Source of the DNA: Lunularia cruciata
Taxonomy: Eukaryota > Streptophyta > Marchantiopsida > Lunulariales > Lunulariaceae
Direction of reading: 5' to 3'
Length of the DNA stretch: 64,000 nucleotides
Assembly: GCA_948567375.1 (NCBI GenBank)
Contig: OX419762.1
Span: 31,253,465 to 31,317,464, forward strand
Program-made: the position numbers and the translations under genes
Notes under the pieces: generated by a model
The model's input: the letters and a program-made list of their open reading frames with translations, nothing else
Databases searched by the model: none
What the model was told of the DNA's origin: nothing
Shown here: positions 34,969-58,680 of the stretch, piece after piece
Position numbering within the stretch: the first letter of the stretch is position 1
Layout: the number at the start of each line of letters is the position of its first letter

Positions 34969-35347
34969 TGTGGTACACACATTTTTTTGGTTTTGTTATA
35001 TTTGAAGAAGTGTATAGTCAAAGACGGATAGAACCAAAATGGTGACAAAAGAAGGAGAATTTTGTCTTTGGGTCAAACCCAAAGTAGTTTACTTTGTGTT
35101 AAGAAAAGAAGAACTCAAATCGGATTTGTCACTAGAGAAGCCTAAAGTAAGGAAACTTCACCTTGGGGTGATCAACCCGATATAAAGACAGAGTAACAAT
35201 TTTCCTTTGGCTTTGCCAACCAAGAACATACAAGAGAAAATGGTTAAGGCATGAGCATGATAAAATTGACAATGACAAGAGGAACACATGCAAAATGTGT
35301 GATTATCAAGTGAAGAGTGACTAAAGGATGACTGCACAATGAAGACC

Positions 35348-35354
35348 TATAAAA
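35348..35354 (+). promoter_or_regulatory. TATA box candidate upstream of the A-LTR ORF
   Basis: TATAAAA lies about 350 bp before the ORF start. It is kept at 56012-56018 in the 3' LTR in the same context (CTATAAAACT). In the copy at 28484-29159 the site is worn. If it is the promoter, transcripts would begin upstream of the ORF. Confidence 0.4.
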
Positions 35355-35702
35355 CTAAGACTTCATAGAAGGACTTTCAAAATGCCACGCAAGTATCCTA
35401 TGCTACTAAGTAGTTGTTCCTTAGTAGTGCTTGTTATAAAGCCAACCAAGAGTTCAATGCTTAAGAATCCTAAGGGAGTTAGAATTTGATATCCAAGAGG
35501 CGGAAGAATTATCTTCCAGATACCAAGTATGAGAGATCGCATAATGTCAATGAAAGGAGGGGAGGGGGGGAAGAAGAGTCCTTCACTTGCAGTGAGAAAT
35601 CTTGCAATTTGGAGGTTAGATGTTATAGCAAGGATCAAAGTCTTGAGCAGACTTTAGATCACTTTTTGGACTTGGAATTGGAACTCAAGTTTTCCAAGCT
35701 TC

Positions 35703-36706: not shown

Positions 36707-36725
36707 TGTAATACCAAGGGTTAGC

Positions 36726-37014
36726 CATATGATCTAGATGTGAAATTTGGTTTGGTAACTTCTAGAATGATGTTATACATGATGGTCAAAATAGATCAGA
36801 TAGAAGTATCACCAAAAGAGTACTTCTACTAAAAGGGCAGAAACCGAAATAGACTTGAGAACCTTAGAACCAATAGGTAGACATATGATTTAAAGGTGAG
36901 AATTGGTTTGGTAACATCTAGAAGGATGTTACACATGATGGACTAAACAGATTAGAAAGAGGTATCACCAAAAGGGGACTTCTACTAATAGAGTAGGAAC
37001 CAACATATGCCTGA
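36726..37014 (+). repeat. Two diverged 155-bp tandem units in the B U3
   Basis: The units start CATATGATCTAG (36726) and CATATGATTTAA (36881). They share GGTTTGGTAACWTCTAGAA and TATCACCAAAAG. All B LTRs here carry both, so the duplication is old. Confidence 0.75.
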
Positions 37015-39090: not shown

Positions 39091-39126
39091 AGAGGAGGAG
39101 GTGGAAACCACTTTGGAAAACAAAGA

Positions 39127-39720
39127 TTGCCAATAAATGTACCTCGTGGCCTTACTTGCTCAATAAGGAAGCAGAGAAGCGAGGGAAGGAAGAAGAATAA
39201 TGTGCAAAAGGCAACCTCACAATTGATTGTCGTGAATGGAATCCTAGAAGGTAATCAAGTGAGAGTATTAATAGATCCGAGAGCAACAGAGAATTTCTTG
39301 TCTTGCTCTGTTGCAATAAGATTGGGAATGGATCTAGAGAGAGATGGACATGAAGAAGTAGAGTTACCAAATGGGCAAACAGAGAGGATTGAATCATTAC
39401 CTACACGGGTAACCCTCTCTGTAGGAGAATATCAGGAAGTAATTGAGTGGCGAGTGATATAGTTAGCCCATTATGATGCAATTTTAGGCATGCCATGGAT
39501 GGAGCAGTACAACCCAATGGTGTATTGGAGGAAGAAAGTAGTGAGAACCCACCAATGGTCAATCATTGGGGTTTAAGAAAAATCACACAAGCAGAAACTG
39601 CCTCTATATGTCGTAGGGACGACAACTGTCTGTAAGACTGATAGATGTTTTATGGGTCTAATAAGAGAAGTTCAGAGTGCACAACTTGCTGGACAAATTC
39701 CTAAGAAATTGAAGGATGTG
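39127..39720 (+). pseudogene. B protease
   Basis: Residues 30-56 of the open stretch read TSQLIVVNG and VRVLIDPRATENF. This is the aspartic protease active site with DSGA changed to DPRA (Asp codon at 39274). The second part, YDAILGMPWMEQYNPM, follows a stop (39460-39462). It would cut the Gag-Pol polyprotein; here it is inactive. Confidence 0.85.
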
Positions 39721-41180
39721 GTGGATGAGTTTCAAGATGTCTTTCCCGATGATCTACCCTCATAATTACCACCTAAAAGGCGAGTAGATCACAAAATAGA
39801 GACACTCCCGGGGAAGACACCAACTTGTAAGGCCCCATATTGCCTATCCCCTCATGAGTTGGAGGAGTGTAAGACTCAAATTGAGGAGATGCTACAGAAA
39901 GGGTTCATTTAACCTAGCGTATCACCATATGGGGCTCCTGTCTTGTTTGTGAAGAAGAAGGATGGTACAATGCGTATGTGCATTGACTATCGGTGTCTCA
40001 ATCAGCAAACAATGAAGAACAAATACCCCTTACCTCGCATGGATGACCTGTTTGATCAACTCCATGGAGCGAGATACTTCACCAAACTGGACTTGCGGAG
40101 CGGTTATAATCAAATCCAAATTGCAGAGAAGGATGTGTACAAAACTGCCTTTTGAACCAAGTATGGCCACTTTGAGTATCTTGTGATGCCTTTTGGCCTC
40201 ACCAATGTGCCTGCCACTTTCATGAGCCTAATGAATGACATATTTCATCCATACTTGGATAAGTCTATTATTGTCTTCTTGGATGATATCTTAGTATATA
40301 GTAGCACGATGACAGAACACAAACAACATCTACAAGAGGTCCTCCAGATTCTAAGACAGAATCAGTTGTACGCCAAAATCTCAAAGTGTGAGTTTGGCAA
40401 GTCTGAAATAGACTACTTAGGGCATAGAGTAAGTGCAAAGAGCATTCAAGTATTGACCGATAAAATAGAGGTCATTCAAAAATGGAGTGCCCCAGAAGAT
40501 CAGACTCAACTTAAGAGCTTCTTGGGGTTGACGGGATTCTATCGTAGATTTTTCAAGGACTTCTCCAAGGTTGCATAGCCTTTAACGGCACTACTTGGTA
40601 AGGGGAAGAAGTGGACTTGGGGGACCGCACAAGAGTTGGCCTTTCAAGAATTGAAGGCCACCTTGCTACATGCACCAATCTTGAAGTGATATGACCCAAA
40701 ACGTCCAATCAAGTTGGCTATAGATGCATCAGGCATAGCAATAGGAGTAGTCCTACAACAAGAGTGGCATGACGGATGGCATCCAATTGCATATTTCTCT
40801 TGAAAGTTGTTACCGGCAGAGCGCAACTACCACACCATAGAACAAGAAGAGCTGGCCATTGTTCTAGCAACCAAGCATTGGAAGCACTACCTGGGCGAGA
40901 AGGCATTTGTAGTAGAGACAGACCAGAAACCTCTAGTCTACCTCGAGACGTAGAAGGATCTATCTCGTCGCCAAATTTGGTGGGCAGAGTGGCGACAACA
41001 CTTCAACATGACAATCACCTACGTGGAAGGTAAGAAACAACTAGCAGATGCATTCACCCGTATGCCAATGGCCAACAACTTGGTGGCAGAGGTTAAGATT
41101 AACCCTGAATTCTGGCAAGAGATTCTAGCTACTACAAAAATTAATCCACAGATTGTAGAAGCGTAATCGTCCAAAGGTGT
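39721..41180 (+). pseudogene. B reverse transcriptase and RNase H
   Basis: Same frame as protease with scattered stops. Reverse transcriptase blocks: [43 protein letters not shown], and the catalytic FLDD at 40276-40287 ([11 protein letters not shown]). Then [16 protein letters not shown]. RNase H has KLAIDASGIAIGVVLQQ and ERNYHTIEQEELAIV, with acidic residues in place, and VETDQKPL. At least six in-frame stops (for example 40153-40155 and 40576-40578), mostly from CAA/CAG/CGA type codons. Confidence 0.9.
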
Positions 41181-42330
41181 CACCAGCACCCAAGGACTCA
41201 CCTTTCGAGATGGCAGATTATGGATCCCAAATGTCCCTGACTTATACACCACCATTCTAGCAGAATGTCATGATTCGGCCATTGCAGCTCATGTCGGAGT
41301 AGACAAGACCTTGGACAATCAAGCGCCATTACTATTGGCCCAAGATGAGCAACAACGTAATGGACTATGTGCGTAGTTGCCTACTTTGTCAACAGAACAA
41401 AGCCTCTAATCAAGCTCATGCAGGGCTCCTTCAACCTCTCTCCACTCCTTCCCAACATTGGGAACAAGTGAGTATGGATCTCGTCTGCAAATTACCCAAG
41501 ACCACCTCAAGGTTTGACTCCATTGTGGTCTTTGTGGACCGGCTCAGCAAAATGATTCATGTACGCCCTACCACCAAGGAGGTGACCGCTCCACAACTAG
41601 CTCAACTATACTTAGATGCAGTCTTTGCTTACCATGGCTTATCTAGAGTACTCATCACCGATAGAGGCACCCAATTCACCAGTTTGTTTTGGCGAACACT
41701 CTTTGGTTTCTTCAAAACCAAGTTGGCCCTGTCTACAGCTTACCACCCACAAACAGATGGCCAAACAGAGCGGGCTAATCGCACGATTGAAGACATGTTA
41801 CGCGGCTTCACCTTAGAAGAGCAAGAGAGGTGGGACACCCTACTACCGTTGGTGGAATTTGCTTACAACAATTCAGTGAATGCCTCCACCCAGGTCACTC
41901 CGTTCTTCCTCATGTATGGTGAGCATCCCTTCACACCTTCTAGCTTGATGAAGATCCGTCCAGTGACAACCAAGGTTGATGTAGTCAACACATTTGTTTC
42001 TAGAATCCAACAAAGTGTGGAGAGCGCCAAGCATAGGTTACAGATTGCACAAAATCAACAAAAGCAGTATGCTGATGCACACCGTAGGCACATGGAGTTC
42101 AATGTTGGGGATCAAGTTTGGCTATTGACAACCAACCTCACATTAGTTGGATCTCGTAAGCTCAGACCTTGTTTTATTGGGCCTTTCTCTATTCTTCGTC
42201 GCATCGGCACTGTGGCCTATCATCTTGAGCTACCACCACACATGAAGATCCATCTAGTGTTCTATGTCTCCCTCCTACGCAGATATGCTCCCCAATCAGG
42301 CCAAGGTCCTTCCACACAAGACATTTGACC
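41160..42330 (+). pseudogene. B integrase
   Basis: The zinc-binding start (HDSAIAAHVGVDKTL) is followed by a 1-base shift near 41318. Then 41345-42328 is open for 327 codons: CLLCQQNK, catalytic Asp45 (VSMDLV), Asp105 (LITDRGTQF) and Glu141 (DGQTERANR), so a complete DD35E triad. Then the GPF/Y region FIGPFSILRRIGTVAYHLELP. This is the best preserved enzyme domain in the window. Confidence 0.93.
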
Positions 42331-42550
42331 TTGTCCGACACTCATTGATGGCACAAAGGAATATGAAGTGGAGCGGATTCTCCAAAAACGCATGCGTGGT
42401 ACTCGCCATCCGTGGGTGGAATATCTAGTACAATGGAAAGGTTACCTCCTCTATGAAGCAACCTGGGAACCCGCTGCCAATTTGGCACATGCATCGGTGT
42501 TGGTACAAGCATTTGAGCAACAATTGCGCAACGAGGACGTTGCGTCTTAA
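42331..42550 (+). pseudogene. B chromodomain
   Basis: After one stop, YEVERILQKRM, then EYLVQWKGYLLYEATWEP and a C-terminal helix. This is a classical chromodomain at the integrase C-terminus, which in chromoviruses is thought to guide insertion to marked chromatin. The reading stops at 42548-42550, right at the polypurine tract. Confidence 0.9.
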
Positions 42551-42563
42551 AAGGAGGGAGGTC
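42549..42563 (+). promoter_or_regulatory. Polypurine tract of B
   Basis: AAAAGGAGGGAGGTC directly precedes the 3' LTR (42564). It overlaps the pol stop codon. Confidence 0.85.
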
Positions 42564-43214
42564 TGTAATACCAAGGGTTAGCCATATGATCTAGATGTGA
42601 AATTCGGTTTGGTAACTTCTAGAATGATGTTATACATGATGGTCAAAATAGATCAGATAGAAGTATCACCAAAAGAGTACTTCTACTAATAGGGCAAAAA
42701 CCAAAATAGACTTGAGAACCTTAGAACCAATAGGTAGATATATGATTTAAAGGTGAGAATTGGTTTGGTAATATCTGGAAGGATGTTACACATGATGGAC
42801 TAAACAGATTAGAAAGAGGTATCACCAAAAGGGGACTTCTACTAATAGAGTAGGAACCAACATATGCCTGAAATCTTTGAAGGCAATTTTGGAGGCCTAA
42901 ACGGATGAATTAGGCCTTGAAAATGTGCAGATTCCCCCCCAATGGAGGAGAGGCTGGCCTTCCCTCCCCCTTGCTTTGTCTCATCAAGAGCTTTCCAATG
43001 GTACCTTACTCATGTGATTCTGAGATTCCTACAGGAAGATTCTCTAAAAGATTCCCTCCGGTCAAAGCTTGTTTGACCAACCAGATAGGACCTAGACTAG
43101 ACAGGTCACCCATCCAAGTAAGTAATCCAAGGGTGGAGCTTGCTGACATGTCACCTATTTGTGTCCCTAATCCTATGGTGGGGCTTCCTTGGAGGAGATC
43201 CTCTTTGTCTATAT
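42564..43214 (+). mobile_element. 3' LTR of forward B, first part
   Basis: It matches 36707-37360. It is broken at CTATAT (43214) inside the TATA box by element C. It continues at 53155-53245. Confidence 0.93.
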
Positions 43215-43666
43215 TATCACGCCATTTGTAGTTCCGCATCTAGCTGCTCCGACACTAGAGTTCCAATGATAGTAGTTAGAGTTATTCTAGTAGTTTCTCA
43301 AGGACAACTTTCCGACAATCTGATTTGGTGTTCGGGGTACTGACTTCATGGTGGGGCCCATCATCACTTTGCACCGTTCGCACCGTCGAGTGTGCCGTCA
43401 GCGGGACCGTTAGGGTTCCAGTGCTAGCTCGAGTCCAGGGGGGTATAGTTTCGAAGTGAGCTCTAGCGAGTTCACTTCTCTGATGTTGAGCCTTCAAGTT
43501 CCTAGCTATGGTGGACAGAGGCCGGCGAGCATCACCTGGATTCTCTATGCTTGAGTGGGTGTGGCTTGATTGTAATCAGTGCCTAGTTGTTGGCAGCTTT
43601 TAGAGTGACAGATGAAGTACTGATCTGAGTTGAGTTGAGTTGAGAGTGTTAAGCAATCTGATTACA
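43215..43666 (+). mobile_element. C LTR lacking its first part (left end)
   Basis: It aligns with 52600-53048 with about 6% difference by my count. It ends GATTACA. No good primer binding site follows; ATCAGAG at about 43666 is at most a damaged initiator-Met site. Confidence 0.85.
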
Positions 43667-45019
43667 TCAGAGAAGTGAAGTCAGGGGGAAATCGGGTGTA
43701 GGAACGTTGAGTGTTGGTGGTATCTCCAAGCTCGATGGATCGTGGTAGCTCGATTCAAGTTATGTGTTTCCCTAGTGTGCAAAAGCTCGTTCAAGTGATT
43801 CAGATTTGGCAGTTAGGCGGTTGGTGTGCGGAAGCGCTGGCCAAATTTTGAGCAAAGAAAGAGCAATTTTCAAGCAGTGTTGTGATTTTGAGCAAAGAAA
43901 GAGCAATTTTCAAGCAGTGTTGTGATTTTGAGCTCAGGAGGTGAAGGCAGGACCAATTTGCTACGAGTTGGGCTCGGAAAGTGAAATTGAAGGTGGAGTT
44001 GGGAAGCTCTTCTCATGAAATTGTGATTTGGAAAAACCCGTTTTGTCAATTTGGCTTGAGTGGAAAGTTAGCGGAGGATTTGACAGACAGCCATCTTTAG
44101 GGTTTATGTCAGATTTTACGTCAAATTTACATCAAATTTTGAGCCAGATTTAGAGGAGTTTTTGCTGTGTGGCCAGATTTGGAGGAGTTTTGCTAGTTTG
44201 GAGGACTTTTGCAGATTTGGAGAAGTTTCACCAATTTTGGAGGAGGTTTTGAAGTGGCAACAAGAAAGGCTGAATTTTGGCATTTTGAGGCATAGGGCTG
44301 TGGGCTATGAGAGGCTATGAAGGCCTAGAAGGGCCAGCTAGAGGCTAGCTAGTTTAGAGTAGATCTTGGTCATTGGTTGGCAAAATCTGCCTTTCTTGCT
44401 AGATTGTGCGCAATAGGGTTTGACCCCTAGATCTCTTGTTCCTAGACTGGTGCCCTAGCCAACTGGTCCACCCTCACTTGTTGTCCTAGTGACTGCGCCA
44501 CTGTTATCTATACACATGTAGCTTTGGCTAGGAGAGGCAGTTTGATCCCATTCTTGGTGATCGTGGTAGCTTAGGATTTAGATACGAACTGCTCTTATGT
44601 CAAATGCCAAATGGTGGTAGAGTCAGTCCCCTGTTGTGTTATGAGATGGAGGGTTTTTGTTTAGATTTCTTTTGATTGGATCCCCTCCATTCTTTGCTTC
44701 TTGTTTGTGCACCACGTTTGTGTGCGGTGCCTTGACTTTTGAGCGTTGGTGCTCTGGTGTGCTCTTGATGGTGTGGCTGGAGTGATGACCAGTCAAACTA
44801 CCTTTGTTTCTCTTTGGTGAGGCAGGAAGTGATGACCTGCAAACCGTGAGAGTGCATGTTATGATGGTAGGTTATAGGTTGCCTTTCCCCTAGTGTAGTT
44901 ATCTCGGTTAGAGTTACATTAGTGGGTGGTGTCTAGTTGGTGTTGGCACGTGGTGGTGTTGGCACTTGGTGGGGCACTTGCGGTTGCAGTTGGTGGTTCG
45001 GGTTTGCTGTTGTAGTTAT
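43667..45019 (+). other. Leader of element C
   Basis: Non-coding, about 1.35 kb. It has a 40-bp direct repeat (units from 43845 and 43885) and several TTTGGAGGAGTTT-like boxes at 44140-44260. Confidence 0.6.
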
Positions 45020-47204
45020 ATGGTCACGACGGAGTTCTTTGGAGATTCTAGAGGAGTTAGCCCTGTAGTACGCAGTGGGTTTACTCGGAGTGGTGCTCGA
45101 TATCAGCCTGTATCTCAAATCCCACTAAGGGAGGAGATTGACTCTGAGTTAGAGTTCAACACAAGAGCTGATTCAGTTGAGAGTGCACTTGGTGTGTCCC
45201 GCACCGTTGTTGTGGGACATGGACGAGATTTATGGAGCCTCCAAAGGCCCTAGGTGTTACTTTGGTACAGTGGGTACCATTGAGTTGGATGACTTCATCC
45301 AGGAGTTTGATAGTTGGTGTGATCTGCAGCAGATGCGGAACCCGACTTTGTTCACACCCTTCATGGCATGGAAGGGGTTGTTCCAGCATCTGGAAGGTCC
45401 GCCGATGGATGACTACTATGAGTTCAAGAGAGCTCATTTGGAGGAGATTGAGTTATGGAGACAGTATTGGTCTCCACACTATGTCTCCATCACTTCAGGC
45501 TCGATGGCCAGGAGTCGATCGACTGTACCCACGAGTTCTAGCTCAAGTAGAGTTGGTGGAGCTAGTGGAGGTGCACTAGCTGGAGATAGTGCTACTACGA
45601 GTGGAGGTACCGCTGCAAGAGGTGGGGTGGTACCGGGGTTTAACCCCATGGTAGAGTTCTTCCTGTGTTTGAGGCAGAACTACCAAGGAGTGCGGACCGA
45701 CAAGTTGAGAAGCTTGCAGGAGTTCCAGCGGAAGGCTGGAGAGAGCCTACGCGAGGCATACACTCGCATGAGGCGGCTGATCAGTTTCACTTAGGGAGTT
45801 ACTGAGGCCGAGGCAGTCTAGTTTTGGTATGGGATACTGGACAAGGAGTTGCGACGTAGAGTTTGTGATGCTACGTTGTTGCAGGCTACTTCGCCCACTT
45901 TGGCAGTAATCTTTGGTTTGGCTAAGCGTATTGAGCTCAACATGGTGGAGGAGAGAGTGGTGACATTTGGATTTGGTAGAGAGACCTCATCCACGGTTGT
46001 GACTTCTTCTAGAGTGCAACAGAGTGCACCACGCCTAGTTGGTTTTTGAGGACAGGGTGGACAGCCTAGATCCTATGGAGCGAGTGGAGGGCCTAGTGGA
46101 GTTAGACCCTTACCCTCATTTTTGGGTCAGCAGCAGCCAGTGAGTGGTGGTGTTGCTTGTTGGACTTTTGGTGGACCTCACCATAGGAGAGAGTGTACTC
46201 AGGGCAGCGGACCTGATAACTTTGGTGCATCACAGCCAGCACAGAGGCAGTGTGATCACTGCCACAGATTTGGTCACACTAGTGACCGGTGTTTCGACCT
46301 ACACCCGGAGTTACGGAGTGGTAGGGCTGCTATGGCAGGTAGTAGAGGAGCTCTAGTTCATGGAGGATGATGTGGTAGAGGTGGTGGTAGAGGATCTACA
46401 CCTAGTAGGGGTGCAATACCTGCCCTTACTTCTGACATAGCTATGGCTACTCAGATTGAGAAGTTGGAGCAGAGATTGGCTAGTATGGCTATTGCTCAAA
46501 GGAGATCAGATTTGGGGGCTGAGGCTTCCACCTCATATGCTGGTGATAGAGATGCTTTGGACTTCATGTGCACAGCAGCACAAGTGGATGCATCTGCAGC
46601 AGTGACTAGGAGTGCAATACGTGCTCCAGAGCCTAGAGGAGCATCAGTGGAGTTGGACCTACAAAGAGGAGAGGTTGGGAGATAGGTCAAACTTCCCCAG
46701 TCTTTCACGCTATTTGAGGCATTGCAGACGACATCCATGGTTCCTAGATGTCCTAGTGCAGGTGTGGTAGGTGGTGATGGAGTACATGATGGACTACCTA
46801 CTAGTCAGCCACCTACTACTACACAAACTGAGTCTAGCATGATGTTGGGGGTGGCTTAGCTGATTATGCGGCATCCTTTATTTTCAGCCAGTGACATCTT
46901 TACATTGGGAGTTGACCCAGCCCCAGTATTCCGGTTGGCTGCCACGTTGTGTGAGAGTAGGGATGGTGCAGTTCCTATTACTAGAGCAGAGGTGGTTGGT
47001 AATGGAGCTGACTTGTTTGAGGAGCATGGGATCCGTTCAGCGACCAATGGTTTATGGCAGGCAGCAGCGGCTAGACTAGAGGAGTTGCCAACTAGACCAA
47101 CCTTTGAGAGAGCGCGGTTTACACCTGGTGTTGTCCTATTGGATAACCAGAGGGGGGATCTTTCATTTGGTGGGACCTTCAGGGAAGGTCTATACACCAC
47201 ATAG
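45020..47204 (+). pseudogene. C gag
   Basis: It begins at about 45020 and shifts frame near 45180-45220. One frame with few stops then runs from 45177 to 47204. The N-terminal part has DDFIQEFDSWCDLQQMR. A Ser/Gly-rich linker is followed by a gag core with FFLCLRQNYQGV, LQEFQRKAGESLREAYTRMRRL. A zinc knuckle CDHCHRFGHTSDRC lies near 46254, preceded by a worn second one (CWTFGGPHHRREC). A long tail of about 270 codons follows the knuckle before protease begins in the +1 frame at 47104-47204. Confidence 0.8.
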
Positions 47205-47820
47205 AGTCTTGTTAGACTCTGGTGCGCAGCCCCTTATGTTGGGGAAGGCTACAGTTGTCGGTCTGGAGTTACGGAAGACCGATGTGGAGAGGTGTCCATT
47301 TCAGATCCAGACATCTCTTGGTGGTGGTTCGACATAGTACATCACACGTGGAGAGCTTGTTGTTTAGGTTCAGCCTGGTCATCTGATTGATAGCTCGGTG
47401 GTGAGAGCTCAGGCTATTGCGACGATAGCTGAGTCATATGATGTGCTAGTTGGAGGAGCAGTGTTATACCCTATGGGTTTCAGCATTGACTATTGGGAGG
47501 AGACAGCCTCTTATAGACCTGGTTGGCAGTCTGGTGAGGGACAGGTATGTCACCTACCAATACGCTTCAGTAGTGGCAGTCTTGGCTCACTACAGTCCGG
47601 GACCATGGTAGCATCAGTTTTAGCTTTCAGCGGTGCAGTCACTTGGCTTGGTGACTTGTTGGAGGGGAATGCCCATGCAGAGAATACTTCAGTACCAGAG
47701 GAGATCACTCGGCTTTGGAGTACAAGTGGGATTGTTCCATCCACCTTGGATGTTCCATTGTGGAGTTCAGAGGAGGCATTGCAGCAGCATGCAGATCAGT
47801 TGGTGCAGTAAGCTTGGAGT
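47104..47820 (+). pseudogene. C protease region
   Basis: In the pol frame, VLLDSGAQPLMLGK has an intact DSGA active site (Asp codon 47215-47217). About 70 codons later LVGGAVLYPMGFSIDYWEE resembles the second half of a retropepsin. About 110 residues of unassigned linker follow up to the methyltransferase. It overlaps the end of gag by about 100 bases in another frame, so +1 frameshifting or a secondary indel is possible. Confidence 0.8.
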
Positions 47821-47879
47821 GGAGCGTTCGTACCATCAGGAGATGAGTGTGAGGGTGAGCCTCCAGAGGCAATTGCTTT

Positions 47880-48885
47880 GATACCTCTGGATACCACACT
47901 CATTGCTTGGCAGTATCCAGTAGAGGGGATATGCCTATTGGAGTTGTTTGGTGGGATCAGCACCGGACTAGCTGCGGTGTTACAGGCGGGTATTTGAGTA
48001 CAGAGGTACTTGTATGTAGAGAGAGATGAGACTGCTAGGCGAGTCACTCTACATCATGTGGCACACTTGGCCTATCGGTATCCGGAGTTATTATTGATGT
48101 CAGCAGTCAAAGGTTACCAGAAGGCCTTACCAGGAGACATTTCCTTATTGGGGGCGCATGACCTAGAGAGACATGGGCCTATTCACTTGGTGATTTTTGG
48201 ATGGCCATGTTAGGGACATACACGTGCGGGCCGCGGTTTGGGTCTTTAGGATCCTTGTTCTGGTGTGTTTTGGGAGATGTTACGTATACTACAACATCTC
48301 CAAGTTCATCAGTCTATTTCTCCAGCTTACCTTTTGGAGAACGTTCCATTGATGGGTGATTCTCGCACTAGAGTGGTGGCAAGTACACATCATATCCATT
48401 CATGGATGGGACCTGCTGTATTGTTAGATGCAGCCAGAGTGGGATCACGGGCTCATCATCTTTGTCTTTGGTGGACACACCTCTTACCCAGAGAGGTTCT
48501 ACAGTGTAGTTATGATGGGATTTAGCAACTAGACCACATTCTTGTTGATGATATCTTGGATGTTGGACGTCAGTCTCAGACAGTGGTAGTGGCTGATAGG
48601 TCACCTATGGCAATGGTGAACCTAGTTGGACAGCCTAGAGTTGCATTTCCCACACTCATGAGTTTCCCAAGCTCTCATGCTTTTCAAGAGAGAGGACCTG
48701 GACTTGTTTGGGACTCACAGTTACAGCATTTGGTGGAGCCCAATGCTGATGAGAGAGAGCGGGCGATGGGTTTTTGCACCAGTATTACCGCTGTTCCAGC
48801 AGTGTCAGAGGCATCTAGGTGTCAGGTGTTAGGTCAGGCTATGGACCCGAACTGTTTGACCTAGATTGTGAGCCTTGGCTTGGCA
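47880..48885 (+). pseudogene. C5 cytosine DNA methyltransferase domain inside C pol
   Basis: In the same frame as protease and reverse transcriptase, the C5-methyltransferase blocks follow in canonical order. Motif I, LELFGGISTG (47938 on), binds the methyl donor. Motif IV, FGWPC then a stop in place of Q then GH (48196-48219), carries the catalytic Cys. An AGRGLG stretch follows. Motif VI is LLENVP (ENV at 48337-48345). A VIII-like block, VGSRAHHLCLWW, is near 48440. Motif IX/X-like sequence is ERERAMGF (48760-48783) and VLGQAMDP (48829-48850). The span of about 330 residues fits a complete catalytic domain with target-recognition region between VIII and IX. Stops are at 47998, 48211, 48250, 48523 and 48862. 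It would have methylated cytosine in DNA; the present copy is dead. Confidence 0.85.
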
Positions 48886-49320
48886 GAGCAGCGTAGGATG
48901 CGCTTGATAGGCATCACCACTCGGACACTTGTGAGCCTTGTGCCTATCAAGACGATTCAGGCACATGCTGGGGGCGATGGACCGAGTGGACAGGGTATTC
49001 TTGGGACACATCCAGTAGCTACTAGGGAGAGTGGTCTACTTGGAGTCCATCCAGGTGAGCGTGGGCTACTTGGATTACACCCTTGGTCCACATGGGATGC
49101 AGCTAGAGGACGTGTGGAGCTTGCAGCCAGAGTGGAGGGAGTTTTTCACACAGAGGTTGAGACCTCTAGTGGTCGGAAGCATGACACTATTGCTCCCAAG
49201 GGCCCAGTGTAGCAGCCAGTCAGTACGTCTTCGACTCCTACTACAGTTACAGAGGATACTTGGGAGCCAGATCTTGGACCCAAGCTTACTGGAGAGGAAA
49301 GACGGAGGGTTTAGAGGTTC
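48886..49320 (+). pseudogene. C pol linker between methyltransferase and reverse transcriptase
   Basis: About 140 codons, mostly open (48868-49212), with three related segments GLLGVHPG, GLLGLHPW and ILGTHPV suggesting a short internal repeat. No known domain. It leads into EERRRV and the reverse transcriptase. Confidence 0.5.
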
Positions 49321-50340
49321 TTGAGGAGTCACACGAGTTGTTTTGCCTTCAACATGAAGGATTTGGGTGCTCTGAAGGGACCAAGTATACGGATTGAGCT
49401 GACTAGCGACACACCAGTTTTCCGACGTCCTTATTGATATAGTGATATGGAGAGGACATTGATTCAGAGCCGGAGTAGTGACCTTTTTGAGGCTGGTTTG
49501 GTGGAGATTTCACATGGAGAGTATGCATCAATGACAGTGATGCTAGCCAAGAAGGATATGCATGGCAACTATACAGATAGGCGGATGTATGGAGATTACC
49601 GTCCTATCAACCGATAGACCAAGGCTGATCGGTATGCCATGCCTACACTGGAGGAGATTTTTGATGCGATTGGGCACGCAAAGGTCTTCAGTACTTTGGA
49701 TCTTCGAGCGGGATATCATCAGTTGCCGATCAGGGAGGAGGATAAGTCCAAGACAGCATTTTGGGCTATTGATCCTCACGGCAAGGATGTGTTATATCAG
49801 TGGAGGTTCTTACCATTTGGGTTGAAGATCGCTCCCGCTAAGTTCCAAAGGGTCATGGATAGGATCCTAGCTGGATTAGATTTTGCTTGATGCTATATTG
49901 ATGACATTTTGGTTTATAGCACTATTGTGGAGGAGCATGAGAGACAGTTGTTGGAGGTGTTTGAGAGGTTGAGATCTCATGGACTCAAATTACATCTTGG
50001 GAAGTGTAGGTTCTTCCACGAGCAGGTTGAGTATTTGGGTCACACTATCTACCCCGGAGGACTTGGTGTCCAGCAGACCAAGGTGGAGGCTATTGCACGT
50101 ATTCCTCGGCCTACGGATGTGAGCAGAGTGCAAGCATTCCTTGGGTTGGCAAAATTCTATCGCCGCTATGTTAGAGGATTTAGTGCCATTGCCAAGGCCT
50201 TGACAAAGCTGACCAAGCTTACACAGGAGTGGTGTTGGGGAGATGAGCAGGAGAGAGCTTTTGTAGAGCTCAAGGAGAGGTTGACATCTGCTCCTATTTT
50301 GAGGAGACCGATCAGGGACGACCATTTTAGGTTCACACTG
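49321..50340 (+). pseudogene. C reverse transcriptase
   Basis: Same frame. Blocks: VMLAKKDMHGNY, MYGDYRPINR, YAMPTLEEIFDAIG, STLDLRAGYHQLPI, FLPFGLKIAPAKFQRVMD, and the catalytic YIDD at 49894-49905 (YIDDILVYS) just after a stop at 49888-49890. Then KCRFFHEQVEYLGHTI and FLGLAKFYRRYVRGFS. It is a Ty3/gypsy type. The RPINR version and the tail differ from B, E and A. Confidence 0.9.
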
Positions 50341-51060
50341 ATTGGAGTATGTTGGGGCTTGGAGCGGTGCTCACCCAACATGATGATGAGGAGAAGGAGT
50401 TTGTGGTGGCCTATGCTAGTCGCTCCAACAATTCAGTGGAGGCAAAGTATAATTCATATGAGGGAGAGTGCTTGGCAGCAGTTTGGGCAATAGAACATTT
50501 CCGATGTTACCTATTTGGTAACCCCTTCACTCTCATCATTGATCATCAGCCGTTGAAATGGTTGATGGAGCCCGACAAGCTTTCAGGGAAGCTTGCATGA
50601 TGGGCTCTGATTTTACAAGAGTATGATTTACGATTGTTCACAGACCTGGAGTGGTGAACCGTGATGCAGATGGGTTGAGTAGAAACCCATGTCCCAGCCA
50701 GCAGGATTAGACCGGAGCACGTTAGCATGGTGAGACAGATGAGGAGATGGTGCCAGGTTGGCATGCATCGGCCTTTCTGTGTATATTTGTAGAGGCTTTG
50801 GTGGTATCTCTCTCAGCACATACAGGAGGATTTATTGAGGTCACAGATCCAAAGAGTGAAGATATTGGTACAGTTCAGCGAGACATTCATGATGATGTCT
50901 TAGTGATGGACTATCTTTGCACTAGTGTTGTGGGTGGCACAGTTGGGGCCAAGGAGAGAGACCGTGTTCTTCAGCAAGCCAAACGGTTCAGATTGGAGGG
51001 TAGACACCTTTTGTGTGTATGGGAGGATGGTAGAGTGCGAGTAGTACCACTTCCATCACA
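50341..51060 (+). pseudogene. C RNase H and spacer
   Basis: A shift near 50340 moves RNase H to another frame (50349-50600): LGAVLTQHDDE, SYEGECLAAVWAI, FTLIIDHQPLKWLM. A second shift follows. 50747-51070 is an open spacer before integrase. Confidence 0.8.
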
Positions 51061-52020
51061 GAGACCATAGTGGTCCGTCATGCTCATGAGGAACTAGGAA
51101 ATTTAGGAGTAAAGCGTACATATAGCTTACTCCAGAGTCATTATTGGTGGCGCGGTATGTAGACCAAGGTATAGTAGTTTGTTGCCAGATGTGTGGTTTG
51201 TGACCAAGTTAGAGCATCATTCAATGCTCCTACGCCACAGTTACACCCATTACCTATCATGGGATTGGGTTACCGTTGGAGTTTGGACTTTGCCGGACCT
51301 TTACTGCTGACTGTGAGACATCATCGGTATGTTTTGGTGATGGTGGAGCACTTCTCCAAGTGGATTGAGTTGGTGGCACTTCTTGACAAGTCTAGTGAAG
51401 GGACAACTTACTCGTTCTCGGATCGAGTTCTTAGTCATTTTGGTGCACCAGCTGAGGTATTGACTGATCAGGGTACAGAGTTCTTGGAGGAGTTTCAGGT
51501 CTTGTGTGACAAGGCTTTGATTGATCATCGTACTACATCCCGAGATCACCTTGAGGCAGATGGCTTAGCAGAAAGAGTGGTTCAGTCGGTGAAGAGAGGA
51601 TTGCAAAAGTATGGTTTGCAGAGAGGCCACTTGGGAGATTGGGATCTCTAGTTACCTTGGTTGGCCATGGGCTATCAGTTCAGCCGGCAAGCCTCCTTAG
51701 CATCCTTCTCTCCATACTTTATACTCTATGGAAAAGATCCAGATTTACCTGCAGCCATTCGTTGAGATGCTATTGTAGTTTTGGACTTGGATGACCCCAA
51801 TGTATGGATGAGCGCATGTTCTCAGCGGGCAGAGATCTTTCGGAGAGTGATGCCAATGGCCTTTGAGAACTTGGCAATTGCTTTGCATAGAGATACTTTA
51901 CGCTATGCTACCATTCGAGGAGGAGGTTATAGACCCTTGATCCGTCAATTTCATCCAGGCGACTATGTATATCTACAGTAGACAACACCGACGACACTTG
52001 ATGTTTCTACAGGCCGCACT
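51061..52020 (+). pseudogene. C integrase
   Basis: Back in the pol frame. The catalytic core has Asp (RWSLDFAGP, codon 51286), Asp (VLTDQGTEF, codon 51466) and Glu (DGLAERVVQ, codon 51571), with 34 residues between the last two, so DD35E is complete. Open stretches are 51193-51651 and 51781-51981. The zinc-binding start (51061-51192) is broken. The C-terminal part, RQFHPGDYVYL, is the usual beta-rich region. Confidence 0.88.
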
Positions 52021-52023
52021 ATC

Positions 52024-52323
52024 TTGAGAGTGCGTGAGGTTTTTCCATCTGGAGTCCTTGTGTTAGAAGGACGTTATGGTGTTGTTTGGAAGGATCATGT
52101 GCGCAATTGTGCGCCATGCCACCTTCCAAACATTGATGGTACTATGGACCCAAGCTTGGCACTTGTACGTGCAGGCTTGAGGTGTATGTTATGTGGCTCT
52201 TCTGGTGGAGCTGCTACTATGTTAGTGTGTGATAGCTGTTCGAGAGGATGGCATATGGCATGTATGACTCCTCCCCTCACGGTGGTTCCTCAAGGACAGT
52301 GGTTATGTCCTAGATGTACTTGA
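52024..52323 (+). pseudogene. PHD finger at the C-terminus of C pol
   Basis: 100 codons without a stop. After the end of integrase (VFPSGVLVLEGR), residues 54-98 form a complete C4HC3 zinc finger: C54, C57, C69, C72, H77, C80, C95, C98, with the typical CDSCSRGWHMAC, PP and W93 of a histone-H3-reading PHD. It occupies the place of a chromodomain. Stop TGA at 52321-52323. All eight ligands are intact. Confidence 0.9.
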
Positions 52324-52492
52324 CCTGTAGCTAGTTCATTCTTTATATGGTATAGATTGCAGACAGGCGACTAACAATAGGGCTCCATAGCACCCGGCCT
52401 CTTGATCTTTGCCCATTAGAGGGTATACCATATACTTAGAGTAGATGGCTATCTGGAGTTAGAGGGACCTAACCGCCAGCTAGGGGGGCGAT
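52324..52492 (+). other. 3' untranslated part and polypurine tract of C
   Basis: Non-coding. It ends AGGGGGGCGAT right before the LTR start TGTGGCAC at 52493. The G-run is a likely polypurine tract. Confidence 0.6.
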
Positions 52493-53048
52493 TGTGGCAC
52501 TTTAGAGTCTATGTATGACTTATGTGTGAGTTGTGTTTTTATAGTGTATGATGTTGACAGCGATGTATGTTGTGTAGCGATGTATATACGCACAACAGCT
52601 ATCACGCCATTTGTAGTTCCGCATCTAGCTGCTCGGACACTGGAGTTCCAGTGATAGTAGTTAGAGTTATTCTAGTAGTTTCTCAGGGACTACTTTCCGA
52701 CAATCTGATTTGGTGTTCGGGGTACTGACTTCACGGTGGGGCCCACTGTCACTTTGCACCATTTGCACCGTCGAGTGTGCCGTCAGCGGGACCGTTAGGG
52801 TTCTAGTGCTAGCTCGAGTCCAGGGAGTATAGTTTTGAAGTGAGCTCCAGAGAGCTCACTTCTCTGATGTTGAGCCTTCGAGTTCCTGGCTATGGTGGAC
52901 AGAGGCCGGCGAGCGTCACCTGGATTCTCTATGCTTGAGTGGGTGTGGCTTGACTGTAATCAGTGCCCAGTTGTTGGCAGTTTTTAGAGTAACATATCAA
53001 GTACTGATCTAAGTTGAGTTGAGTTGAGAGTGTTAAGCAATCTGATTA
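52493..53048 (+). mobile_element. Full 3' LTR of C
   Basis: About 556 bp, TGTGGCACTTTAG to CAATCTGATTA. The final CA seen at 43665-43666 is missing here, where the next LTR piece starts. The U3 start follows the G-rich tract. Confidence 0.85.
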
Positions 53049-53049
53049 T

Positions 53050-53154
53050 TGTGGCACTTTAGAGTCTATGTATGACTTATGTGTGAGTTGTGTTTCTATA
53101 GTGTATGATGTTGACAGCGATGTATGTTGTGTAGCGATGTATATACGCACGACA
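53050..53154 (+). mobile_element. First 105 bp of a second C LTR (right end)
   Basis: It matches 52493-52597 with two differences and stops at ACGACA. It directly abuts the preceding LTR end, a head-to-tail LTR-LTR join such as two-LTR circles have. Confidence 0.88.
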
Positions 53155-53245
53155 ATATAATAAAGAGAAGGTGCTCCCTTGGAGCATTGAATTTTTGAGT
53201 GTGCAATCTGTATTTTCTCTCTTCTCTTGTCCTCGGAGTATTACA
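53155..53245 (+). mobile_element. 3' LTR of forward B, last part
   Basis: It matches 37357-37446, starting with the ATAT duplication and ending GTATTACA. The B target duplication TGTTT follows. Confidence 0.93.
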
Positions 53246-53735: not shown

Positions 53736-55597
53736 AGGATACACTGCTCTATTTATAGAGTACTTGGATGTATTTGCCTAGTCGATTGATCAAATGTTGG
53801 GTATTCCATGCCAATTTGGAGTACATCAGATTGATCTAGTTGAAGGTGCAGGTCCGGTGCATCAACAACAATATCAACTGAACCCAAAGTACTCACTCTT
53901 GGTGAAAGATGAAATTGACAAATACTTAGGGGCTGAAATACTCTTTCCTATCTTGAGCAATGAGTGGGTGGACCCATTGTCATTTTTCTAAAGAAGAAGA
54001 CTAGGAAGATTTGAGTGTGCCAAGACTTTCACAAATTGAATGTAGTCACAAGAAAGGATCATCATCCCTTACCTTTTACCAATACAATTTTGGACCAAGT
54101 AGCTGGTCATCCTTGCTATAGCTTTCTTGATGGATTTTCAAGCTATAATCAAGTATAAATTTGAGAAGAAGACAAGGACAAAACCATATTCATTATCAAT
54201 TGGGGCACTTTTGCTTACAATCAAATGCCCTTTAGGTTGTGTAATGCTCTCGCTACTTTTTAGCATATGATGAAATGCAATCTCCAAAGATTTTTTGCAC
54301 AAATTTGTGGAAGTCTTCATTGATGATTTTTGTGTTTTAGGGCAAAGAGAAGTACAGTTAGATTACCTTTGCCAAACTTTTGAAAGCTGTCATTTTGCCA
54401 GCTTGTTATTACACCTGAAGAAATGCTTCTTTGCAATGAAGGAAGGTATTTTTGGGGGCATGGGGTCTCAAGCCAAGGTATTGAAGTTGATGTCAAGAAG
54501 GTGAAAGTCATCTCAGCCTTGGAATCCCCTAAAACATTTAGGAGTTGAAGGCCTTCTTGGAACATGTTGGATACTATAGACTCTTTTTACAAACTATGCA
54601 ATGCTTGCTGCACCCCTAACAAAGCTTCTGAAGAAGTCCAAAGACTACTTGTGGGAAGTAGAACAAGAAGAAGCTTTCCAAGTATTGAAGAAGAAACTAG
54701 TTGAAGCACCAATTATGAGGGTCCAAAATTGAGATGCCTCTTTTCATGTGTATGTGGACACTTTGTCCATGACAATCAGAGTTGTTTCAAGTCGGAAGGA
54801 CAAGAAGAAGAAAAACTACCCAATTTACTATGCCAACCAACAACTTTCAATTGCAAACCAGAATTATTCAACGATTAAAAGAGAAGCACTCGGAATGGTG
54901 TATGCTTGCAAATGGTTTTTCCACTATTTATTGGGATATAGGTTTGTCTTTTATGTGGACCATTATGCTCTACAACATTTGGTAAAGAAGGTAGATTTGT
55001 TTGGGTGAATTGCAAGGTGGATCTTGTTGTTACAAGAATTCACATACACTATACAAGTTAGGAAAGGAGCTTCACATACAAATGCAAAATTGTTATCCAG
55101 GTTGGAAACTCAAGACAAAGACTTGGAAGTTGATGATCAATTTCCTTCAAAGAGCTATTTCATTTGATGGCAATACAAAGTACAAGGTATGCGGCAAAAT
55201 ATCACTATCTGCATACTTGCCATTGTTTTGAGGGACTAAACCCAAGGTAGAGGGCAGTCTTCCTCAGGAAGATGGGACCATACTAGCTAAAACACAACAT
55301 TTTTTTAAAAAATAGGCAGAGACAAAGTATTTTGGAGATGCTTGGAGGCATGCAAAGTCAAAGTAGTAATTGAATCCTTACACTTGGAAGCATTAGGAGT
55401 ACACTATGCCTTGAAGAATACTATAAAGAAGATTCTTTCATTGGGGTACTAGTTGCCTACAATGTACAAGGACACTCACGCCCATATCCACAATTGTGAT
55501 GCCTATCAAAGAACAAGAAAGCAGATGGCTACTTCTCAATGGCCTTTGAGACCAATTTTTCCATTAGCTCTATTCAAGAAATGCCCACAAAGCTAAA
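53736..55597 (+). pseudogene. A pol: reverse transcriptase, RNase H, integrase start
   Basis: NPKYSLLVKDEIDKYL and SNEWVDPL begin the reverse transcriptase. DHHPLPFTNTILDQVAGH, then the catalytic FIDDF (54316-54330) and NYSTIKREALGMVYA (RNase H) with FVFYVDHYALQHLV. An integrase zinc region (HIHNCDAYQRTRKQM, near 55486-55530) is cut off at PLALFKK. The RxDHHPLPF and FIDDF forms are like the Athila/Tat branch, not chromoviruses. Gag, protease and the integrase core are absent. Confidence 0.8.
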
Positions 55598-55842: not shown

Positions 55843-56365
55843 TGCAAAGATAGAGTAACAACTTTCCTTTGGGTTTGCCAACCAAGAACATACAAGCAAA
55901 AAAATAGCTAAGGTGTGAGTGGGATAAAATTGGCAATGATAGGAGGAATGCAGGCAAAATGTGTGATTATCAAGTGAAGAGTGACTAAAGAATGACCGCA
56001 CAGCAAAGAACTATAAAACTGATACTTTGTCAAGGCAATTTTGAAATATCATGCAAGTATCCTATGCCACTAAGTAGTCATCCCACAATAGTGCATGTTA
56101 CAAAGCCAGCCAAGAGTTTGATGTTTGAGAATTATGAGGGAAGTTAGAATTTCATGTCCAAGAGATGGAAGAAATATCTTCCAAATACCAAGAGTGAGAT
56201 TGCACGATGCCAATGTGAAGAGGGGGGGGGGAGAGGGAAGAGTCCACCACTCATAATTACAAATCCTGTGATTCAGAGGTAGATGTTATAGAAAGGATCA
56301 AAGTCTTGAGTAGACTTTGGATCACATTTCTAACCTGGAACTGGAACTTGAGTTTTCTAGGTTTC

Positions 56366-58680
56366 ATGGCAAAAATAGTTGCAAGTAATTGTGAGAAGGG
56401 TCCAAAAGAAGAATGGAAGAAAGGCAATCCGGCTTGATAGACAAAGTTGGATTGGAGACTAGTCCTGAGGAAAGAGGCTAGTGAGGAAACCGGAGCTACA
56501 TTCCACAAGAAAGGAGAGTCTACAAAAGAGACTGCAAAAATCCATAATTCCCTTAGTGCTTCGTGTACAAAGAACATGTACAAACTAGATACCTATCAAG
56601 ACCTGATAAGGCAAAGTATTGTTTGAGGTAATGATAGAAATCTTCAAGCCGGAGCAAACCACTTATGTGATGAAGCACCAAGCCGTGTTCTTCCACAAAA
56701 TGTTTGCAAGAGAACCGGTGAATTGGGCAAAGTGCTTTCACTAGCAAACAAGGCAAATGGTCTGGAATTGGAGAGAAAGATCACCGCCATACTACCTAGT
56801 GCTATTTTCAGCACATTTCTACCCTGGGTTGAACTTGTTGAGTGCATAATAGAGACAAAAGATGGTGTTTCACTTTGACCCAGACTTGAGAAGAGAAGTG
56901 GATGTAGAAGAGCAATAGTACATCCACCAGATTTGAAGTAGCAACAACCACTTTGCCAAGACAAGACAACAAAAGAGAGTGGTGGTGAAGATCCCAAAGA
57001 CAAGGAAGTGAAGTTGACCAGAAGAGATGGTGTCTTCACTATAGCCACAAGAAACAAGGAGGTTGGTGCCGAGGCACAAGGTCATCTTGAGAGACCAGAC
57101 GTCGGATGAAGAATCAGAAGGAGAAGCCAAAGACAAGTCATAGGACTCAATGGAAGAAGAAGAAGCAAAACTGATGTTGCAGAGTGAGGAGTCGAGTAGT
57201 GGGAGTGATGGAGAACCCAAGGTGCAATGGCTATTCAAGGAAGTGGCTGAGGAGGAAGATTGAGAGTTCCATGTGGCAATTGACCGCATGGAATGATGAA
57301 ATATTCCATGGTTAGAGTTGCCTACGGTGGAAATAAAAGAGTAGAGAGACAAAGAGTCAAGGTTGGTGTTTCCACAAGGAACCAGAACAAAGAAGAATGA
57401 ACAATTAGCCAAAGTAGGACTGAGTAAAGCAAAAGGTGAAGATGACAGCTTGGAAGATTTTGCTCTGAAGATTCAAAGATCAAGACTTTGGAGTAAGGTG
57501 CCAATTGAAGAAGCACTAATGCAAGCAACGGGCAAAGGTAAAGACAAGGAAGAAGAAGAAGAAGATTTTGGGGAAGTAGTCTACTTGTCTAAGATTGTCT
57601 ATCCATTGCTTCAAATATTGAAGAATAAAGAAGGAAGAGATGAAGAAGGATCATCCAAAGATAAAGGATGAACTGTAGGTTGTGAAGTATATGAGTGAAG
57701 AGATCATGGAATTGAGGGAGAAGTTAGCCAAAGGAGAGAAGCAAGCTGAAGAGCTTTGGGTGGACAAAGTATTACGACAGAAGAGATTTGAGAATCTGCA
57801 TGAGTCTTTTGAGAAGTGAGGAAGCAAGCTTGAGAGGCAAGCCAAAGAGTTGAGTATGCAAAAGACAGCTTGAGAGTAGTTTAAGGGTGAATTTGATGAA
57901 GTGCATATTGAGGTCATACATTCAAAAGTAACTGCAGTTGTGATGAAGCAAGAGTTGGAGAGTTTGAAGTCAATGGCAGTACAAAAGGATAAAGCCTGGC
58001 AGCGGGAGTTAGCAAGGAGGAACAGAGAAGAAGAGCAATTGCAAGGACTTGTCATAAATGTAGAATCCCAACTTGTCCAATACATGGAGGAGAAGTAAGC
58101 ATTCAAAGTTGAGTTTGAAGATGTATTGTGAAGATTTGTAGGTGAAGAGAGCTCTCAAGATCATACATCAAAGCAAGTAGGGGGACTAGAAGAAAAGCTC
58201 AGTGCAATATTAAAAGCCAAAGCCAAAGCCAAAGCAAAGGTAGAAGAAGTATGCTTGCACAAGTTGAAGTTGTTAGTGCTGGAGACTAGAAGGAGAAAAG
58301 TGAAGGATAGAGATCTGAACAATCTTCTGATTTGCCTACAAGACCAAGTAGATAGAAAGATGATAGAGGTAGGAGACAATATTTGTCTCACATTAGATTT
58401 AGTTACATCTGAGTTAGAGCAGATTTGGAGGAACATGAAGGTATGAAGCCAAGGCCAAGTAAGAGAAGTAGGAGTGCAATTGTCTTTGGAGGAGTTATCT
58501 GAGCAATTAGGAGTAAGTGGGAAGGAAGATAGAATATCCATGTCTGCAATTGTAGCTCAGATTGAAGAGATGGTAGCAATAGAGGAAGAATTGGTAGTAG
58601 AGAAGTCCAAAGTACAAGGGGTAAAGGAAGTTACATGGGGTTTAGAAGAAGAGGTTGAAATTGGATTGGATTCATAACCA
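56366..58680 (+). pseudogene. A-LTR coiled-coil ORF copy 4
   Basis: It starts ATGGCAAAAATAG at 56366. The most complete, uninterrupted copy, though with shifts. The acidic linker (about 57150-57280) is followed by 57363-57671 (KKNEQLAKVGLSKAKG, EEEEEDFGEVVYLSKIVY), coiled coil 57690-58240 including 57901-58098, and the conserved block at 58255-58446 (CLQDQVDRKMIEVGDNICL). The last open part is 58474-58677. Predicted all-helical, no membrane segment. Unknown function. Confidence 0.7.

What the first reader, a model, noticed from the sequence alone, without database searches (positions are those of the whole stretch)
47880..48885. A cytosine-5 DNA methyltransferase inside the pol of a plant Ty3/gypsy element
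Seen: motifs I (LELFGG), IV (PC), VI (ENV), a VIII-like block and IX/X-like blocks in order, in the same frame as an upstream DSGA protease and a downstream YIDD reverse transcriptase. It is therefore one polyprotein, not a host gene caught by chance. Known: methyltransferase-bearing retrotransposons have been reported, as I recall, in dinoflagellates and charophyte algae. I know of none described from vascular plants. Inference: such an element could alter the methylation of its own DNA or of host DNA, interacting with the silencing system that normally represses it.
Basis: partly seen in the sequence, partly recalled or inferred. Interest (0 to 1): 0.93.

Follow-up and report, generated by a model that had tools for sequence, protein, structure and literature searches.

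The report
Liverwort retrotransposon carrying a DNA methyltransferase
A jumping gene that is repeated many times in the genome of a liverwort (probably Lunularia cruciata) carries its own DNA-methylating enzyme inside its gag-pol coding region; relatives of the enzyme occur in other liverworts and in mosses, whereas the published cases we found were in algae and dinoflagellates.

Summary

It is a repeated family: all 20 further copies fetched carry the domain (picked by it, so biased), unbroken in 12. Marchantia, Riccia, Calypogeia and Sphagnum encode relatives.

The host is a bryophyte, very likely Lunularia cruciata, not a vascular plant. DNMT3-bearing gypsy elements are known from the charophyte Klebsormidium, so the kind is known.

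Not found in the papers read:
- a land-plant host;
- the MTase ending a gag-protease-MTase ORF1, before a shared in-frame UAG CAR YYA and the RT-to-PHD ORF2;
- 4-bp duplications (13 of 15 testable loci) around an A-coding-B-A-B unit, fitting a DDE integrase that opens a circular two-LTR DNA at an internal palindrome;
- a second architecture with the MTase after RNase H.

Activity, readthrough and the circle are inferred. Whether MTase-less copies exist was not tested, because the genome tool stopped answering.

The parts
43211..43214 (.). left copy of the 4-bp target-site duplication ATAT
   Evidence: sibling repeats in the window hold the unduplicated site
43215..43664 (+). repeat A1 (450 nt; left end TATC here, TGTC in most other copies)
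   Evidence: 93.8% identical to A2
43665..43682 (+). primer-binding-site position (CATCAGAGAAG...), directly after A1; matching tRNA not established
45153..46370 (+). gag region with zinc-knuckle-like cysteines (broken here)
   Evidence: Pfam Retrotrans_gag only below cut-off (E 0.1)
47203..47478 (+). protease region, DSGAQP
   Evidence: motif read by eye; no Pfam hit obtained
47890..48918 (+). C5-methyltransferase, DNMT3-like, motifs in unrearranged order; five stops in this copy
   Evidence: unbroken copies and a homolog:
49210..49218 (+). in-frame UAG CAG CCA between MTase and RT; UAG-CAR-YYA readthrough-type signal found in 20 of 21 loci
49393..50707 (+). reverse transcriptase (YIDD about 49894) and RNase H
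51178..51648 (+). DDE integrase core (rve)
52183..52317 (+). PHD finger at the integrase C-terminus, end of ORF2
   Evidence: (PF00628, 7.4e-12)
52481..52491 (+). polypurine-tract-like TAGGGGGGCGA before B1
   Evidence: read by eye
52492..52597 (+). repeat B1 (106 nt)
52590..52608 (+). B1-GC-A2 junction; reads GACA-GC-TGTC (palindrome) in 9 of the 17 loci where it was read, ACA-GC-TATC here
52600..53048 (+). repeat A2
53049..53154 (+). repeat B2, right end of the element (..CGACA)
53155..53158 (.). right copy of the target-site duplication ATAT

Best explanation
A multicopy, recently mobile Ty3/gypsy family of a liverwort carries a DNMT3-type de novo cytosine MTase as the last domain of its Gag-protease-MTase protein. 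Shown from sequence: the domain order, the unbroken MTase frames, the shared UAG CAR YYA, the A-coding-B-A-B unit and its 4-bp duplications. Inferred: (1) most ribosomes stop after the MTase, so it is made at Gag level and packed with it; a minority reads through UAG to make RT-RNase H-integrase-PHD. (2) The MTase methylates CG in the element's own new cDNA inside or near the particle; a simple advantage would be that the cDNA looks like host heterochromatin instead of foreign DNA. (3) Reverse transcription from the position after A1 and from the purine tract before B1 gives BA-internal-BA. Its ends are joined (the A2|B2 junction) and integrase opens the circle at the B-GC-A palindrome, which leaves A-internal-BA-B with a 4-bp duplication. 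(4) The PHD finger steers integration by reading the histone H3 tail.
For: MTase identity: (the 50 Foldseek rows shown are all entries of the DNMT3 family). Repeated family: (123 scored hits of 2161 candidates, host genes included). MTase constraint like RT: N/S of shared changes 0.36 against RT 0.32, integrase core 0.31, gag 0.37. Readthrough: UAG CAG CCA/CTA/TCA in 19 of 20 fetched loci and the window, CAR YYA being the six essential nucleotides after the TMV UAG (PMC2754532, passages). Unit and ends: A1, B1, A2, B2 all present in 15 of 21 loci; exact 4-bp duplication in 13 of 15 testable. Circle: the A2|B2 junction joins the LTR end to the LTR start, and in L021 it holds five extra bases equal to those after A1. 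Old linkage of MTase to gag-pol.
Against: No activity is shown. In the passages read of PMC5890265, yeast methylation is reported for SymbioDIRS-Dnmt3 and DNMT3A, not for the Klebsormidium enzyme. Of the 12 unbroken MTase frames, four (L013, L024, L027, L028) have a changed residue in a motif block. Copies mutate mainly by transitions, most often per site in CG and CHG, so the host still methylates them. Changes inside CAR YYA are what C-to-T decay would give anyway. Five Marchantia predicted proteins (P0006, P0008, P0011, P0013, P0014) and a Sphagnum one (P0025) join MTase and RT or RNase H in one gene model, so a stop between them is not shown there. The PBS-derived bases occur in one copy only, and that copy (L021) lacks a target duplication. 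The purine tract and PBS are read by eye. N/S 0.36 is weaker than the <0.2 published for relatives, and the integrase C-terminus with PHD shows 0.54 on few changes.
Confidence: 0.6

Rival explanations
1. The MTase works in trans on host chromatin (decoy, saturation or misdirection of host methylation) rather than on the element's own cDNA.
For: Gag-level production would yield much free enzyme (inference from the ORF1 position). Host DNMT3, DRM and CMT-like exons are present as competitors (named by eye; DNMT3 borne out).
Against: Copies still decay most per site at CG and CHG, so silencing is not escaped. No nuclear targeting was looked for.
Confidence: 0.2
2. The domain is kept for a non-DNA role (tRNA primer or genomic RNA methylation, or structure).
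For: RNA methylation was suggested for SymbioLINE-Dnmt (PMC5890265, passages).
Against: Sequence and predicted fold match DNMT3 best; no DNMT2 chain is among the listed rows.
Confidence: 0.12
3. One-off or degenerate host-gene capture with no role.
For: The window copy is dead, and pairwise dN/dS is only 0.38.
Against: Unbroken domain in 12 of 20 fetched copies; relatives in four further named bryophyte genera, joined to gag or RT in Marchantia and Sphagnum; MTase and RT about equally constrained; retro MTases group apart from host DNMT3.
Confidence: 0.03
4. The split repeats arise without a circle: an unusual linear strand-transfer scheme makes A-internal-BA-B directly and integrase uses its ends.
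For: TG..CA-like ends and 4-bp duplications are ordinary for integrase.
Against: The purine tract lies before B1 and A1 ends at the PBS position, so standard steps give BA-internal-BA. The extra bases at A2|B2 in L021 fit end joining.
Confidence: 0.3

Closest known systems
KnitGypsy-Dnmt3 of the charophyte Klebsormidium nitens (de Mendoza et al. 2018, PMC5890265)
   Same: DNMT3-class, unrearranged MTase inside a gypsy Pol ORF; repeats arranged as in DIRS elements; intronless, several copies, conserved MTase
   Different: Land-plant hosts; MTase in ORF1 before a UAG CAR YYA; PHD finger after integrase; exact 4-bp duplications shown. The words PHD and readthrough do not occur in that main text; its figures and supplement were not seen, and its sequences could not be compared.
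SymbioDIRS-Dnmt3 of dinoflagellates (PMC5890265)
   Same: DNMT3-type MTase in Pol; A-coding-B-A-B repeats
   Different: DIRS element with a tyrosine recombinase; here a DDE integrase and target duplications
Host DNMT3 of bryophytes (MpDNMT3a/b; Lunularia exons at L001, L004)
   Same: MTase class and motif order
   Different: Host genes, split by introns in the Lunularia exons read; a separate group in the tree (100/99)
Readthrough gypsy candidates of rice (RIRE2, cited in PMC2754532) and TMV-type UAG CAR YYA
   Same: In-frame stop in the polyprotein frame (for RIRE2 only the citation was seen); the same six-base context as TMV
   Different: Here the stop separates the MTase, not only Gag, from RT

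Membership tests
DNMT3-bearing Ty3/gypsy (KnitGypsy-Dnmt3 kind) | DNMT3-class MTase, motifs in unrearranged order | tested here: met
DNMT3-bearing Ty3/gypsy (KnitGypsy-Dnmt3 kind) | MTase in the same coding region as gypsy RT, RNase H and DDE integrase | tested here: met
   in frame, with one UAG between MTase and RT
DNMT3-bearing Ty3/gypsy (KnitGypsy-Dnmt3 kind) | DIRS-like A-coding-B-A-B repeats | tested here: met
   all four repeats in 15 of 21 loci
DNMT3-bearing Ty3/gypsy (KnitGypsy-Dnmt3 kind) | MTase under purifying selection (published Ka/Ks < 0.2) | tested here: inconclusive
   pairwise 0.38, shared changes 0.36; about as low as RT but above 0.2, and decay after insertion inflates it
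DNMT3-bearing Ty3/gypsy (KnitGypsy-Dnmt3 kind) | Common descent with the Klebsormidium elements | not testable with these tools
   no sequence named Klebsormidium among the listed hits (120 of 216 listed; 120 of 1401 listed)
DNMT3 (eukaryotic enzymes) | Falls inside the DNMT3 clade | tested here: inconclusive
   retro MTases, plant DNMT3 and other (mostly unnamed metagenome) MTases are three separate groups in an unrooted tree
DRM methyltransferases | Rearranged motif order | tested here: not met
   order I-IV-VI-VIII-X
DIRS retrotransposons | Tyrosine recombinase, no target duplication | tested here: not met
   rve found, no tyrosine recombinase hit up to E 0.1 in ORF1 of L009 or ORF2 of L013; 4-bp duplications
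Chromoviruses | Chromodomain after the integrase | tested here: not met
   a PHD finger stands there, no chromodomain hit
UAG CAR YYA readthrough cassettes | Measured readthrough | not testable with these tools
   motif present, no downstream RNA structure beyond chance (z 0.83); needs a reporter

The most novel reading that the evidence does not exclude
An old group of land-plant and unassigned (metagenome) gypsy elements makes a DNA methyltransferase in Gag-like amounts by placing it before a leaky stop, and integrates not the linear cDNA but a circular two-LTR DNA opened at an internal palindrome by a DDE integrase with a PHD reader. That would be a life cycle between LTR elements and DIRS elements, in which the element writes 5mC on its own DNA before it enters the genome.
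Probability: 0.4. Interest if true: 0.85.

Novelty: new variant of a known kind. Interest (0 to 1): 0.64.

Why it matters
[quoted passage not shown] liverworts and mosses are land plants, so as written this needs correcting, while its tracheophyte part is untouched. Marchantia polymorpha, a genetic model, encodes relatives, so the question why a retrotransposon would carry the enzyme that silences retrotransposons becomes testable there. The repeat anatomy also poses a replication problem: how a gypsy integrase uses DIRS-like split repeats.

Tried and rejected
Rejected: vascular-plant host (genome size, contig sizes, best named homologs); recent capture of the host's DNMT3 (trees); DIRS element (integrase and target duplications); one-off capture. 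A viral-contig scan with the MTase alignment gave two weak loci (34% and 24% identity) which I did not open. Rfam and tRNA scans of the window gave nothing, and the tRNA scan of four loci gave none, so the PBS was not matched to a tRNA. Folding the RNA after the stop of one copy gave no structure beyond chance. CpG observed/expected did not separate this family (0.39-0.48 in 21 loci) from a neighbouring gypsy element (0.47). A second MTase-like C-terminal stretch in metagenome relatives reached only E 0.16 in Pfam, in one of three proteins scanned. The RT tree does not settle whether all MTase-bearing RTs are one clade: the split from the window's other gypsy RTs has 58/81 support. Literature: ten searches over an open-licence library; none of the listings or passages opened described such an element in a land plant, but subscription papers, preprints, figures and supplements were not seen.

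Not done: an RT-based, MTase-blind survey of the genome. Genome requests after one search did not complete.

Full report
WHAT IS THERE. The window lies at C12:31253465-31317464 of an assembly of 565,766,749 bases in 74 contigs; the eight contigs that I met are 60-85 Mb. One paper gives Lunularia cruciata as 565.6 Mbp (PMC12885004, passages). Another gives 580 Mb for its own assembly, and reports Ty3/Gypsy bursts and a small U chromosome in that liverwort (PMC9985172, passages). The named best homologs are from Marchantia. I take the host to be L. cruciata; this is an inference.

THE ELEMENT. Two repeats, A1 at 43215-43664 and A2 at 52600-53048, are 93.8% identical. A second repeat of 106 nt stands before A2 (B1, 52492-52597) and again after it (B2, 53049-53154). 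Sibling repeats elsewhere in the window hold the uninterrupted target, and the insert 43215-53154 is flanked by ATAT on both sides. The unit is therefore A-coding-B-A-B. Pfam finds RT, RNase H, the integrase zinc domain and core, and a PHD finger; the protease DSGAQP and gag zinc knuckles are read by eye. The PHD finger's best PDB matches are CHD4, PHF12, KMT2D and KDM5-type readers.

THE FAMILY. A Pfam search of the host gave 123 scored hits among 2161 candidates, host genes included; the tool calls such counts lower bounds. I fetched 20 of these places as 10-kb stretches, mostly those with long open frames, so they are not an unbiased sample. All 20 have MTase and RT sequence. The MTase frame is free of stops and gaps in 12 of 20, and in eight of these the five motif blocks that I checked are unchanged. 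All four repeats are present in 14 of 20 plus the window; the others are cut by the fetch limits, truncated or rearranged. Ends read TGTC...GACA in most, and a perfect 4-bp duplication flanks 13 of 15 testable loci; L013 and L021 have none, and six loci are not testable. A1/A2 differ by 0.2-10.1% in 15 loci, the window by 6.0%. Of 187 differences 158 are transitions, and per available site CG (58/34) and CHG (53/41) exceed CHH (47/143), as expected of host-methylated copies.

READTHROUGH. In 14 of 20 fetched loci an open frame of 250 codons or more ends at the same UAG; in eight of 20 one of that length starts right after it in the same register. The longest stop-to-stop frames are 1428 codons before and 1037 after it; by comparison with P0003 the first protein probably begins near its codon 99. 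The stop is UAG CAG followed by CCA, CTA or TCA in 19 of 20 fetched loci and in the window; L026 lacks the stretch. CAR YYA is reported as the essential six bases after the TMV UAG (PMC2754532, passages). C-to-T decay alone would keep YYA, so the variants are weak evidence; the shared stop between two long frames is the stronger evidence.

SELECTION. Over 190 pairs (L026 left out) mean dN is 0.023 and dS 0.061, ratio 0.38. For changes shared by two or more copies N/S is 0.36 (MTase), 0.32 (RT), 0.31 (integrase core), 0.37 (gag), 0.37 (linker and protease), 0.43 (tail after the MTase) and 0.54 (integrase end with PHD, few changes); for singletons 0.60, 0.55, 0.73, 0.52, 0.74, 0.81 and 0.98. The MTase is held about as tightly as RT. 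Recurrent deamination can pass for shared changes, so the values lie on the high side.

RELATIVES. The first protein search returned 52 proteins, led by Marchantia polymorpha (74% identity); it includes Sphagnum fallax. The second returned 216, of which 120 were listed, including Calypogeia fissa, Riccia sorocarpa, Marchantia paleacea and Sphagnum troendelagicum. Domain maps of 53 long predicted proteins show two main orders. In one the MTase follows gag and protease and precedes RT: bryophytes, and metagenome proteins P0015-P0017 and P0019-P0022, which also end after the MTase. In the other RT-RNase H-MTase-integrase-PHD share one frame (P0026-P0050, P0052, P0053, as far as each reaches). P0051 and P0054 have the MTase before RT. 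Against a uniform two-ORF picture, five Marchantia gene models and one of Sphagnum join MTase and RT or RNase H in one predicted protein.

TREES. A careful tree of 64 rows (four long or partial rows of the first, 68-row tree left out) puts 38 retroelement MTases on one side of a branch (100/100), 12 plant DNMT3s incl. a Lunularia exon model on another (100/99) and 14 other MTases on a third (98/97); over the 22 rows that I labelled, the two domain orders need one change (first tree). In it Lunularia lies outside Marchantia, Calypogeia and Sphagnum, which is not the host order, so old sister families or transfer are possible. The RT tree supports each order as a group (three bryophyte rows and the window copy 100/100; 18 rows 99/97) but not their union.

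INTEGRATION MODEL. A purine tract stands before B1, and A1 ends at the PBS position. Textbook reverse transcription (recalled) would give BA-internal-BA. The integrated form equals that DNA joined end to end and opened between B and A, at GACA-GC-TGTC (exact in 9 of 17 loci), with loss of the two central bases and a 4-bp target duplication. The A2|B2 join is the same in the other loci where both sides were found; L021 has five extra bases identical to those that follow A1, as in imperfect two-LTR junctions (that comparison is recalled). This is an inference from anatomy.

WHAT IS KNOWN. de Mendoza et al. 2018 (PMC5890265; first of seven parts of the text and passages) describe DNMT3 in a Gypsy element of Klebsormidium with DIRS-like repeats, and in dinoflagellate DIRS elements; their yeast assay showed CG methylation by the dinoflagellate enzymes. 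A 2025 paper repeats the streptophyte and dinoflagellate cases (PMC12344493, passages). An opinion paper states absence from land plants (PMC6338049, passages). A plant LTR-element survey has no occurrence of methyltransferase or PHD in its main text (PMC6317226). So the kind is known, while host range, ORF placement, stop signal, PHD finger and duplication evidence are not described in what I read.

LIMITS. No expression, activity or methylation data; biased copy sample; no Klebsormidium sequence; genome tools unanswered.

Noticed in passing
window 38300-42400, with repeats at 36695-36994 and 42552-42851 (96%): A neighbouring Ty3/gypsy element (gag-like ORF 38470-39090, RT 39805-41067, integrase ORF 41303-42328) in which no MTase was seen; the element studied here is inserted into the repeat at its right.
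   Followed up: partly
window 35237-36561 and 55901-57226: Direct repeats 79-90% identical, about 20.66 kb apart, enclosing the other elements: they look like the two ends of an older element that took in several nested insertions.
   Followed up: no
window 54015-55101: A very divergent RT (long branch in the RT tree) directly right of the MTase element.
   Followed up: no
proteins P0026, P0030, P0048 (unnamed metagenome contigs): MTase-bearing gypsy relatives with a further C-terminal stretch; in P0030 and P0048 it holds DPWAGT-like and TSPW/TSPH-like motifs (read by eye), perhaps a second (amino-) methyltransferase. Pfam gives only a D12-class hint in P0030 (E 0.16) and none in the other two.
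   Followed up: partly
L020 ends; L026 left end: L020 sits inside the 3' non-coding part (preB) of another copy of its own family; L026 has a rearranged A-B-A left end.
   Followed up: no
L001 (C7:31989837-31990154), L004 (C1:51668693), L002, L003: Host exons read by eye as two DNMT3 genes, one DRM with rearranged order and one CMT-like gene; L001 is 64% identical to MpDNMT3b.
   Followed up: partly
protein P0075: A member of the retroelement MTase group is deposited as a bacterial MAG protein (Candidatus Obscuribacterales), perhaps a mis-binned eukaryotic contig.
   Followed up: no
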